Notes under the pieces: model-generated
The model's input: only the letters and a program-made list of their open reading frames with translations
Told to the model about the DNA's origin: nothing
The model's database searches: none
Source: Immundisolibacterales bacterium
Lineage (GTDB): Bacteria > Pseudomonadota > Gammaproteobacteria > HK1
DNA length: 64,000 bases
Assembly (NCBI GenBank): GCA_026712715.1
Contig: JAPOPW010000039.1
Location: 1 to 64,000 of the forward strand
Reading direction: 5' to 3'
Shown here: positions 1 through 3,047 of the stretch, piece after piece
How positions within the stretch are numbered: the first letter of the stretch is position 1
Layout: each line of letters starts with the position of its first letter
Translations under genes and position numbers: made by a program

Positions 1-480
1 CAAGCGCGTGCGCGAACTCACCCCGCGAGTGTGGAAGTCTCTCTTCGCTCACGACCCCTTGCCATCCCCACTCGGGCACCACAACCACGACCCACCACAC
101 TGAGCGCCGGGCGACAAGTACGGCTCAGATTGCCCGGTTACCTTGCGCAGCATGATCCGGTAATGCACCGTGCACGAGTTCGCTACGAACCACCGTGGCC
201 GGGTAGGCGACGCTCCCCGTCAACGCCGGGCCATTCGTCCCGTGTCGATCACGGACGCCGAAGTTTGGGAGCGAAGTTCTACTGCTCGCTGGGATCCGTT
301 CGGCGCTCGGGGGATAAGCGCGGGGACAGATTAGGCCGAACGGTCGGAAGGTCGCGCCTTCCCTCGGAACTGCGTCACCCCGGTAGAGACCGCGTGTAGT
401 CCGTTCCCCGGGACCCGAACGGTTACGACGACAGTCATCTCTCAGGCGTTGCGTGCGGCGACTGTGGTTGGAATCCAAGT
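1..480. other. No recognisable gene
   Basis: I find no recognisable protein in any frame. Open frames exist on both strands (for example 31-399 plus and 125-478 minus), but their translations are arginine/proline-rich, without domain-like hydrophobic patterning, as expected for chance frames in G+C-rich DNA. The stretch lies outside the tRNA-Arg fragment and may be the far side of an integration site. Confidence 0.5.
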
Positions 481-567
481 GCTTCCCAAAAACTTCCCAG
501 TTTGAAATCCTCGGAAGAATGGGAAGTCCATCAATTCCATTTTTTCTATATTTTTCATAAGGTTATA
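481..567. other. Attachment-site-like flank beside tRNA-Arg fragment
   Basis: This A+T-rich flank lies immediately 3' (minus-strand sense) of the tRNA-Arg fragment. It carries two direct copies of CTTCCCA at 482-488 and 493-499 and an inverted copy, TGGGAAG, near 520-526. The same layout occurs beside tRNA-Lys at 2887-2971, with the paired motif at almost the same distance (about 66-87 nt) from the tRNA 3' end and a shared TATATTT stretch. Short repeats at fixed distance from a tRNA 3' end are typical of tyrosine-integrase arm or accessory sites. No integrase is present, so this is inference. Confidence 0.5.
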
Positions 568-613
568 TGGCGCGCCCGGAGAGATTCGAACTCCCGACCC
601 CCTGGTTCGTAGG
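568..613 (-). pseudogene. tRNA-Arg 3' fragment (displaced att half)
   Basis: On the minus strand the sequence has the 3' half of a tRNA: a CCAGG anticodon-stem strand, a GGGTC variable loop, a five-pair T stem closing TTCGAAT, the acceptor strand CGGGCGC, and GCCA. The GCGCCCG acceptor partner this implies is typical of bacterial tRNA-Arg. The 5' half is absent: upstream of about 613 the sequence does not pair with the anticodon stem. A truncated tRNA 3' end is the usual scar (attR) of an element integrated in a tRNA gene. The matching complete tRNA-Arg is not in this window. Confidence 0.75.
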
Positions 614-771: not shown

Positions 772-1302
772 CTACGCGCTTGCTTCCACAGTCCCTGGTG
801 GTAAGCCAATGTCGCGAAGCAGCGCTAGCGCCCGATCAAGCCGGCCGCCGTTGACCTTGCGCCCCTTGCGACGACGCAAAGACTCCTGCCAGTCGTCCTG
901 TCCTTCCTCCTTGACCAGCCAGTTGGCGGTAGCGGCGAGTTCAAGCACGGTAACGTTCGCTTCCTGAAATTCCTGCAGCAAACGCTGGAGCTCGACTCCA
1001 TCAAGCCGGCCGATCATCGCGGGCAACTCATAGCCTTCGTCGGTGAGCTTGAAGATGCTGTAGCGGGCACCATCGACCTGCCGGCGTCCAAACTTCTCCT
1101 CTACGAGCTCGAACGCTTCGGCGTCGGCCACAGCGTTGTCGATGTCTCGGGAGAAGGGACCGTAGTGGTGATAATCGTAGTCGAAGCCGCTCTCGAGTCC
1201 CAACTGGTCCAGCAGATAGACGGTCTTTTGGAGACGAACTCGGCCGACGAGCTGCCCGCCTGCAGCCTTCAGCAAGGCCGCGACGATCTCTTCCCGTTCC
1301 AT
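772..1302 (-). CDS. YwgA/Panacea-like protein
   Basis: This 176-residue protein resembles the YwgA (COG3432) group and, more distantly, the SocA/Panacea (DUF4065) antitoxin domain. The signature is an N-terminal RLQKTVYLL helix (about residues 23-31) followed by YHHYGPFSRDI (about 44-54). The start is ATG 1302 because an excellent AGGAGG lies at 1309-1314; an in-frame GTG at 1308 is too close to it. The stop codon of the HD gene (1305-1307) falls in the gap between this Shine-Dalgarno and the start, so the pair is translationally coupled. As I recall, ywgA lies next to the HD gene ywfO in Bacillus subtilis, so the pairing may be ancient. The function is unknown; an antitoxin or regulatory partner of the HD enzyme is inference. 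Confidence 0.75.
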   Translation of the reverse strand: MEREEIVAALLKAAGGQLVGRVRLQKTVYLLDQLGLESGFDYDYHHYGPFSRDIDNAVADAEAFELVEEKFGRRQVDGARYSIFKLTDEGYELPAMIGRLDGVELQRLLQEFQEANVTVLELAATANWLVKEEGQDDWQESLRRRKGRKVNGGRLDRALALLRDIGLPPGTVEASA

Positions 1303-1304
1303 AA

Positions 1305-2669
1305 TCACCTCCTATTGATCGCGATGTCGCGATCCGCCGCATCCGCAAAGTAGTATCGCGTGAATTGGCGCTTGCTGGCCAGTGCCTCGACAATCTTCGA
1401 CATTTCCGTGATTTCGCGGGGCCCACTGGCGTCGAGAATGTGCAGCTTCTTGTGCATCTTGTCCTCGTCCCCGCCAATTGGCGTATAGATGCCGACCGAG
1501 GCGCTTTCATCCTTGATCACTGCACCGCTGTCGATCTTCTCCCTGAACGTCCGATCAATCCTTCGAGCGGCCTGACGTTGCTTCCCAATGTCGGACCCGA
1601 AGCGACTGATGTCGAGCGCCTTGTAGAGCCGCCGTTCACGAAGTCGTGCCGCCAACTCCGCGACCACAGGGTCATCCCCTCGTCGCATTTTCTCCAGCGA
1701 GCCAGTGATGGCCGAATCGTCAAGCGCAAGGTAGTTCTCGATTGTCTCGCCGCCTGGGGCGAAGAAACGCAGTAGGACCTGGCTCGCCTCCAGTCCTGTC
1801 TGAACCGATGCCCTGTCAGGGTCCACAGCAACCGTCGCAATCCGCCTAAGTAGCGTGCCAATCATGGCTTCGATGCAGCGGGTCGTCTTGTGCAGATAGA
1901 CTTGCTCATGGAGGGTGTAGCGCGACAGCAGGAACTGCTCGGCCGCGGGGAGCGCCTTGAGGTCGAGGCAGAAAGTCGCCACCGTAATCGTGTCCTCCTC
2001 CGTATCGCCCTCAGGGGCGTCGATGACGATGTCGGCGACCCGGACATGCTCCATCAGCCAGTCGAAGTCGATGGCGCCCGCGCCGGTCCCCGTCATCAGC
2101 CGATCGCGCCGTAGGTAGTCCAGGCGATCCGCATCGAATGAGCTCGACACCACGGCGTGATAGATGTCTATTGGATCCTCTGCCGCCAGAAGCGAGGCCA
2201 CCTCCTCTGTGGTACCGGCTCGATACCCCTCGAGCAGGGGACAGACGCCACCGTCGGGATTGCGGATAAGCTCAGCAGTCCATTCCTCGTGCCGCTTCCC
2301 AACCCCGCGCGACATCTGCACCCCTTCGAAGGCGTGGCTGAACGGACCATGGCCTAGGTCGTGCAGAAGGGCGGCGATTATCGCAACTTCGGCGCGATTG
2401 TGGTCGAAGGGCCGGGCGGCGGTGGCCTCGCGCTCAATGATGCGCACCAACTCCCGCGCGACATGAAACACCCCAATGGAATGAGCGAAGCGGCTGTGGA
2501 CCGCACCCGGAAAGACGAACTCCGAGACACCGAGCTGCTTGACCCGCCGAAGTCGCTGGAACTCTGGCGTGTTAATCAGCCTCCAAGCGAGTTGGCCCAG
2601 ATCGTCATTCTCCTCAAAGACGATCAGGCCGTGGACGGGGTCCCGGAGACGTTGTGTGCGAAGTGCCAT
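1305..2669 (-). CDS. HD-domain phosphohydrolase (COG1078/YwfO-like)
   Basis: This 454-residue protein of the COG1078 HD family includes dNTP triphosphohydrolases related to EF1143 and SAMHD1. The N-terminal IRDPVHG-type opening is seen here as RLRDPVHGLI (7-16). The metal-binding set is H63, the H103-D104 doublet (ALLHDLGHGPFSH) and a late aspartate in SSSFDADRLDYL (D181 or D184). It is probably cytosolic and hydrolyses a nucleotide or phosphate ester; the substrate cannot be read from sequence. The start at 2669 has no strong ribosome site. It is co-transcribed with the YwgA-like gene, and the pair sits between two tRNA attachment-like sites. That position and the dGTPase-like fold suggest phage defence by nucleotide depletion, which is inference. 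Confidence 0.85.
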   Translation of the reverse strand: MALRTQRLRDPVHGLIVFEENDDLGQLAWRLINTPEFQRLRRVKQLGVSEFVFPGAVHSRFAHSIGVFHVARELVRIIEREATAARPFDHNRAEVAIIAALLHDLGHGPFSHAFEGVQMSRGVGKRHEEWTAELIRNPDGGVCPLLEGYRAGTTEEVASLLAAEDPIDIYHAVVSSSFDADRLDYLRRDRLMTGTGAGAIDFDWLMEHVRVADIVIDAPEGDTEEDTITVATFCLDLKALPAAEQFLLSRYTLHEQVYLHKTTRCIEAMIGTLLRRIATVAVDPDRASVQTGLEASQVLLRFFAPGGETIENYLALDDSAITGSLEKMRRGDDPVVAELAARLRERRLYKALDISRFGSDIGKQRQAARRIDRTFREKIDSGAVIKDESASVGIYTPIGGDEDKMHKKLHILDASGPREITEMSKIVEALASKRQFTRYYFADAADRDIAINRR

Positions 2670-2886
2670 GGGCGACGGTTCTACAACCGCACTCCGCCGC
2701 CCGTCATCCGATCTAAGGCCTTAAGCACCGGGCACCGGGAGCGGTACTCGTCCGATTGGCTTCGTTCTTCCGCTCGAGGTGCGGACGGTCTCGGTCGGCC
2801 ATCCGATCCCGCATCAGCTTCCATTCCTCCGGAGCGCCAACTCCTCGAGTCCCCCCGCCGTTGACGACGGGAGATTGATTCCTGAT

Positions 2887-2971
2887 GCTTCCCAATTGCT
2901 TCCCAGCGTGGAAATGTCCAAGACATCGACAAACCCTCATTCGTTTTAGTTCCTATATTTCAATCAGTTAT
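2887..2971. other. Attachment-site-like flank beside tRNA-Lys
   Basis: This flank lies directly 3' of tRNA-Lys in the minus-strand sense. It contains CTTCCCA at 2888-2894 and again at 2899-2905, then GGAAATGTCC, and an A+T-rich tail with TATATTTCAAT near 2954-2964. Motif content, order and distance to the tRNA 3' end match the flank of the tRNA-Arg fragment at 481-567. It probably derives from the attP arm of a tRNA-targeting integrative element of the same family. Confidence 0.5.
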
Positions 2972-3047
2972 TGGTGGGCCGTGTTGGAATCGAACCAACG
3001 ACCACCTGATTAAAAGTCAGATGCTCTACCGACTGAGCTAACGGCCC
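2972..3047 (-). tRNA. tRNA-Lys (UUU)
   Basis: This is a complete 76-nt cloverleaf on the minus strand. The acceptor GGGCCGT pairs with ACGGCCC, there is a normal D arm, the anticodon stem has loop CTTTTAA (anticodon TTT, genomic 3012-3014), the T arm contains TTCGAAT, and CCA is encoded at 2974-2972. It appears intact and functional, and probably also marks the boundary of the accessory patch at lower coordinates. Confidence 0.97.

What the first reader, a model, noticed from the sequence alone, without database searches (positions are those of the whole stretch)
772..2669. HD hydrolase plus YwgA/Panacea-like cassette between two tRNA attachment-like sites
A tightly coupled two-gene unit (HD gene stop between the Shine-Dalgarno and start of the second gene) pairs a COG1078 HD phosphohydrolase with a YwgA/SocA-like protein, a fold related to Panacea antitoxins. 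It lies alone between a tRNA-Arg fragment and tRNA-Lys, a typical integration hotspot. A dNTPase-like effector with an antitoxin-like partner is a plausible anti-phage or toxin-antitoxin system. The family assignments are from motifs; the function is inference.
Basis: partly seen in the sequence, partly recalled or inferred. Interest (0 to 1): 0.72.

Follow-up and report, generated by a model that had tools for sequence, protein, structure and literature searches.

The report
Mobile dNTPase with antitoxin-like partner
A bacterium carries, inserted behind a tRNA gene, a two-gene unit that pairs a DNA-building-block-destroying enzyme with a small protein shaped like a known antitoxin; the same pair turns up in phages and in anti-phage gene clusters, so it is probably an inhibitor-controlled antiviral (or toxin-antitoxin) device rather than ordinary metabolism.

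Summary
HD gene 1305-2669(-) and YwgA-like gene 772-1302(-) lie alone between tRNA-Lys (2972-3047) and a tRNA-Arg 3' half (568-612). The HD protein is an EF1143/YwfO-type SAMHD1-like dNTPase with catalytic residues intact. The partner's best fold match is the C-terminal, toxin-binding domain of antitoxin DarG (7yk3, Z 12.1), not Panacea. Mobility is well supported: a congener keeps the tRNA-Lys locus without the cassette, the family lacks it, its nearest kin are mostly alphaproteobacterial MAGs, and both flanking tRNA sites carry an arm-like repeat found only three times in the genome, each ~70 bp past a tRNA 3' end; the third lies beside an integrase remnant and defence-like genes. In all 18 strong stand-alone YwgA loci an HD gene lies directly upstream, and the two proteins co-diverge. 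Pairs occur on phage contigs, inside an Hma-like anti-phage operon, and beside type I R-M. In Bacillaceae the same pair is chromosomal (ywfO-ywgA), so housekeeping forms exist. Best reading: a horizontally moved dNTP-depleting effector held in check by a DarG-CTD-like protein, analogous to Clover. Inhibition, activity and phage defence are inferred, not shown.

The parts
1305..2669 (-). HD-domain dNTP triphosphohydrolase, EF1143/YwfO/SAMHD1 type, 454 aa; H63, H103-D104, H112, E115, D179/D181 conserved
772..1302 (-). YwgA-like protein, 176 aa, DarG C-terminal-domain fold; proposed inhibitor/regulator of the HD enzyme
1308..1313 (-). Shine-Dalgarno AGGAGG of the second gene, inside the 3' end of the HD gene
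2972..3047 (-). tRNA-Lys(TTT), intact; 3' end faces the cassette; locus syntenic with a congener that lacks the cassette
2886..2906 (-). integrase arm-like repeat CTGGGAAGCAATTGGGAAGCA, ~70 bp from the tRNA-Lys 3' end
568..612 (-). tRNA-Arg(ACG) 3' half, from the anticodon loop to the 3' end: att-like core
480..500 (-). second copy of the arm-like repeat (CTGGGAAGTTTTTGGGAAGCA), at the same distance from the tRNA-Arg fragment

Best explanation
It is a two-gene cargo cassette brought in by tRNA-targeting integrative elements. The first gene makes a SAMHD1/EF1143-type dNTPase that can drain dNTPs. The second, translationally coupled gene makes a stand-alone DarG-C-terminal-domain-like protein that binds the dNTPase and keeps it inactive, or tunes its nucleotide activation, in healthy cells. 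Infection (altered dNTPs, or a phage product that removes the partner) would free the enzyme and starve phage replication. Shown by computation: gene pair, homologies, catalytic residues, tight linkage, co-divergence, att-like sites, empty site in a congener, phage and defence-island copies. Inferred: that YwgA binds and inhibits the HD enzyme, the trigger, and the phage-restricting outcome.
For: HD protein: sequence and fold match EF1143 (2o6i/3irh/4lrl, Foldseek E 2e-24) then SAMHD1; catalytic H..HD..H..E..D residues invariant in 10 aligned relatives, with HD-to-HE spacing like that given for the anti-phage dNTPase CloA (H117/D118, H126/E129; PMC12265719). Partner: AF2 model pLDDT 91.9; best PDB match is the DarG CTD in the DarTG complex, Z 12.1 against 8.0 for the next, profile E 3e-4; DarG's CTD blocks DarT by occluding its active site (PMC11481870). 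In all 18 strong stand-alone YwgA loci an HD gene lies directly upstream, mostly overlapping; pairwise distances of the two proteins co-vary, r 0.91, 0 of 20,000 permutations; r 0.87 (4 of 20,000) without the close kin. Mobility: empty site in congener G002; no close copy in 54 relatives; arm repeats at both sites; closest kin 65-78% identical in MAGs labelled Alphaproteobacteria, Proteobacteria and Solirubrobacterales. Defence/phage context: L073 next to terminase, L074 and L085 beside tail or large phage-like genes, L120 inside an Hma-like operon, L115 between a Ccr-like recombinase and HsdM/HsdS, L119 near HSDR_N and OLD/GajA-like genes.
Against: No activity, toxicity or phage test. Bacillaceae carry the pair at what looks like a housekeeping locus (Priestia) and Listeria keeps the HD gene there without YwgA, so the enzyme can live unpartnered. 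Several loci (L113, L114, L117, L005, L007) have ordinary metabolic neighbours. The acidity expected of a DNA mimic is not conserved in YwgA (pI 4.9-8.6). The complex could not be modelled. PADLOC has no such system.
Confidence: 0.55

Rival explanations
1. Housekeeping dNTP-pool control. The pair is a horizontally acquired version of Bacillus ywfO-ywgA: the HD enzyme trims or sanitises dNTPs and YwgA is a co-regulator; the tRNA sites are just where it landed.
For: Priestia pair next to ywgB/ywhC/ywhD-like genes; YwfO proposed as a nucleotide-cleaning enzyme (PMC4993169); several pairs have plain chromosomal neighbours.
Against: Patchy (8 of 385 genomes in one class), absent from the family, phage-borne and defence-embedded copies.
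Confidence: 0.25
2. Plain toxin-antitoxin (addiction) module that stabilises the mobile element, with no specific phage trigger.
For: Two genes, translational coupling, DarG-CTD-like partner, mobile context.
Against: The EF1143-type enzyme is tolerated without YwgA in Listeria; the effector gene comes first and is large; no labile-antitoxin feature was tested.
Confidence: 0.12
3. Phage or element fitness gene: the pair serves phages and elements themselves, by changing host dNTP pools or by superinfection exclusion.
For: Copies next to terminase and in tail modules of viral contigs.
Against: Most copies are chromosomal or island-borne; overlaps with the defence reading when a prophage defends its host.
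Confidence: 0.08

Closest known systems
YwfO-YwgA of Bacillaceae / EF1143 dNTPase (COG1078)
   Same: same two gene families in the same order; HD fold, catalytic residues and C-terminal region align over nearly the whole length
   Different: 30% identity; fixed-looking locus there, tRNA-inserted mobile cassette here; no paper on YwgA function was found
Clover (CloA HD dNTPase + CloB nucleotidyltransferase; PMC12265719)
   Same: two-gene unit: HD dNTPase effector plus a partner; in Clover the partner restrains toxicity
   Different: Clover restrains CloA with a nucleotide (p3diT) made by CloB; here the partner has no nucleotidyltransferase match and looks like a binding protein; the HD subfamily is EF1143/SAMHD1-like
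DarTG, DarG C-terminal domain
   Same: the YwgA-like protein shares the fold of the domain that binds and blocks DarT
   Different: no macro domain, no DarT; the partner is a dNTPase
Stand-alone anti-phage dGTPases (Tal et al. 2022, as cited in PMC12265719)
   Same: HD dNTP-depleting enzyme
   Different: different HD subfamily (TIGR01353 score 37 against cut-off 152) and here with a dedicated partner

Membership tests
EF1143/YwfO-type (COG1078) dNTPase | HD-superfamily catalytic residues and whole-chain fold | tested here: met
EF1143/YwfO-type (COG1078) dNTPase | dNTP triphosphohydrolase activity, nucleotide-activated tetramer | not testable with these tools
   needs biochemistry
YwgA family | homology to the YwgA-position protein of Bacillaceae and position directly after the COG1078 gene | tested here: met
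DarG antitoxin | N-terminal macro domain | tested here: not met
   176-aa protein with no Macro match; DarG-type proteins L065-L067 and L070 have it
DarG antitoxin | C-terminal toxin-binding domain fold | tested here: met
   7yk3, Z 12.1 over 157 residues, profile E 3e-4
Panacea (SocA/DUF4065) antitoxin | match to a Panacea profile or structure | tested here: inconclusive
   no Pfam match at E<=1 and none among listed folds; absence does not exclude a distant link
Clover | partner is a Pol-beta nucleotidyltransferase | tested here: not met
   partner has no NTase match and has the DarG-CTD fold
TIGR01353 dGTPase / anti-phage dGTPase | score above the curated cut-off | tested here: not met
   37 bits vs 152; 22.7 vs 400 bits
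type II toxin-antitoxin | partner protein binds and neutralises a toxic effector | not testable with these tools
   complex modelling and assays not available
tRNA-integrating mobile element | empty site in a close relative | tested here: met
   G002 tRNA-Lys locus, synteny ends at the tRNA
tRNA-integrating mobile element | att-type sites: tRNA 3' copy and arm-like repeats | tested here: met
tRNA-integrating mobile element | integrase gene and matching direct repeat of the same tRNA at the far end | tested here: inconclusive
   no displaced tRNA-Lys copy in the assembly and no integrase match on contig C34, but the contig ends at base 1

The most novel reading that the evidence does not exclude
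The YwgA/DarG-CTD fold is a promiscuous neutralising domain, a counterpart of Panacea, that is paired on mobile elements and phages with different effectors (DarT, EF1143-type dNTPases, proteasome-like hydrolases); HD-YwgA is an undescribed anti-phage system in which protein inhibition, not a nucleotide signal, restrains a SAMHD1-like dNTPase.
Probability: 0.4. Interest if true: 0.8.

Novelty: new variant of a known kind. Interest (0 to 1): 0.62.

Why it matters
It would give the unstudied YwgA family a function (dedicated restraint of a SAMHD1-like dNTPase), connect bacterial dNTP depletion to the DarTG antitoxin fold, and add a second solution, beside Clover's nucleotide signal, to the problem of keeping a dNTPase weapon safe. 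The claim is directly testable with two genes in a laboratory strain.

Tried and rejected
Panacea kinship: no profile or structural match found. ssDNA mimicry as in DarG as a general mechanism: YwgA acidity is not conserved. Membership in the dGTPase or Clover families: HD scores far under the cut-offs and the partner is different. Simple single-element reading with tRNA-Lys direct repeats: no displaced tRNA-Lys copy found and the second core is tRNA-Arg; recombination among sites of related integrases, or stacked elements, is more likely but cannot be resolved because the contig ends at base 1. Plasmid search with YwgA alone found nothing; viral scans with the HD protein alone or the YwgA alignment found nothing, only the HD alignment did. 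tRNA-end search at L118 and L121 found no duplicated tRNA end, so integration there is unproven. I first took PDB 9mr6 for a possible defence protein; it is a fungal SAMHD1. Enrichment near tRNAs or defence genes was not tested statistically.

Full report
Observation. The window starts at the end of contig C34 of a 5.05-Mb genome. From 1 to 3.1 kb it holds, all on the - strand: tRNA-Lys(TTT) 2972-3047, HD gene 1305-2669, YwgA-like gene 772-1302 and the 3' half of a tRNA-Arg(ACG) at 568-612. The junction of the two genes is AGGAGG-TGA-TT-ATG. Both genes are single copy in the genome.

Mobility. In a congener (G002) the same chromosomal block is 85-92% identical and runs up to tRNA-Lys, then diverges: no cassette there. 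No close homologue of the HD protein exists in 54 other genomes sampled from genus, family and class; the best is 40%. The nearest homologues (65-78%) are in MAGs labelled Alphaproteobacteria, Proteobacteria and Solirubrobacterales; L005, L006 and L007 carry both genes, while L008 ends inside the HD gene. Labels of MAG contigs can be wrong; L007's neighbours look proteobacterial to me.

Attachment sites. The motif CTGGGAAGNNNTTGGGAAGCA occurs three times in the genome with zero control matches: about 70 bp beyond tRNA-Lys(TTT), at the same distance beyond the tRNA-Arg fragment, and beyond a second tRNA-Lys (CTT) on contig C14. At C14 it is followed by an integrase remnant, a 1467-aa helicase with DpdJ-like similarity and a DNA methyltransferase. 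I read these as arm-type sites of one integrase type. The window therefore shows two att-like sites with different tRNA cores flanking the cassette. A simple element with matching direct repeats was not found, and the contig end hides the rest.

Proteins. The HD protein matches EF1143 of Enterococcus faecalis by sequence (E 3e-49) and fold, then SAMHD1; EF1143 is a tetrameric dNTPase (PMC12042053). Catalytic residues are invariant in 10 aligned relatives. The YwgA-like model (pLDDT 91.9) matches the DarG C-terminal domain of the M. tuberculosis DarTG complex, Z 12.1 over 157 residues, next match 8.0, and the sequence hits DarG models in PADLOC and NCBIfam below family cut-offs. In DarTG that domain occludes the DarT active site (PMC11481870).

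The pair as a unit. Profile searches of 398 Pseudomonadota genomes, of 48 and 385 genomes of two classes, and of viral contigs gave, with Priestia and the kin above, 18 strong stand-alone YwgA proteins, each with an HD gene directly upstream, usually overlapping. The pair is rare: 8 of 385 genomes in the better-sampled class. In 12 of the pairs HD and YwgA distances correlate (r 0.91, 0 of 20,000 permutations; r 0.87, 4 of 20,000, without three close kin). On the HD tree the YwgA label needs about four changes, so partners have been lost or gained. Listeria keeps the HD gene at the ywfO-type locus without YwgA.

Contexts. tRNA-linked: the window; L006, with a tRNA-Phe 3' half about 320 bp upstream of HD (tRNA identity read by eye); L072, with an integrase and a tRNA 3' end about 1.9 kb away; L118, HD starting about 294 bp after tRNA-Ser; L121, with tRNA-His 89 bp after YwgA. 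Phage: L073 next to terminase, L074 next to tail genes, L085 next to large phage-like genes without a family match. Defence: L120 inside an operon with HmaB/DUF1156 and HmaC/DUF499 similarity, neighbouring genes overlapping by 4 nt; L115 between a Ccr-like serine recombinase and HsdM/HsdS; L119 near HSDR_N and OLD/GajA-like genes. Plain chromosomal: L113, L114, L117 and the Bacillaceae locus.

Mechanism. A dNTPase that can starve replication needs restraint. Clover solves this with an inhibitory nucleotide made by CloB (PMC12265719). Here the constant companion has the fold of a protein that blocks a toxin's active site. The best-supported reading is direct protein restraint of the dNTPase, released or overridden in infection. 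The link between fold and function is inference; DarG-like acidity is not shared by all YwgAs.

Verdict. Real, mobile and coherent. Components are known; their combination as a mobile, probably defensive, unit was not found in PADLOC or in the papers searched. The literature searched is open-access only, so priority cannot be claimed.

Noticed in passing
L069:1501-2675, L100:1432-2663, L110:1309-2663: Short YwgA-fold proteins lie next to a gene with proteasome/Ntn-hydrolase similarity (Pfam Proteasome); in L069 a tyrosine integrase is also adjacent. Suggests that the YwgA fold pairs with several effector types.
   Followed up: partly
L014:1366-3366 (G002) and L011:1369-3334 (G004): In two relatives of the window's organism an HD-domain gene is followed by a nucleotidyltransferase gene (Pfam NTP_transf_2): a Clover-like pair.
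   Followed up: partly
G000:C14 (L057:2593-9567): tRNA-Lys(CTT) with the same arm-like repeats, an integrase remnant, a 1467-aa helicase with DpdJ-like similarity and a DNA methyltransferase: a candidate defence island.
   Followed up: partly
L037:5631-9422, L038:267-3886, L039:3635-7422: On rhizobial and Roseibium plasmids a COG1078-like HD gene ends a four-gene row: radical SAM, 3'-5' exonuclease, AAA ATPase, HD; in L039 it lies near a DncV-like nucleotidyltransferase gene.
   Followed up: no
L041:2415-6072: Klebsiella prophage carries an HD-domain gene near its integrase, without YwgA; similar YwgA-less HD genes on several viral contigs (L075-L083).
   Followed up: no
L122:6392-9692: A longer YwgA-like protein (about 240 aa) near a Ccr/XisF-like serine recombinase, with no HD neighbour.
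   Followed up: no
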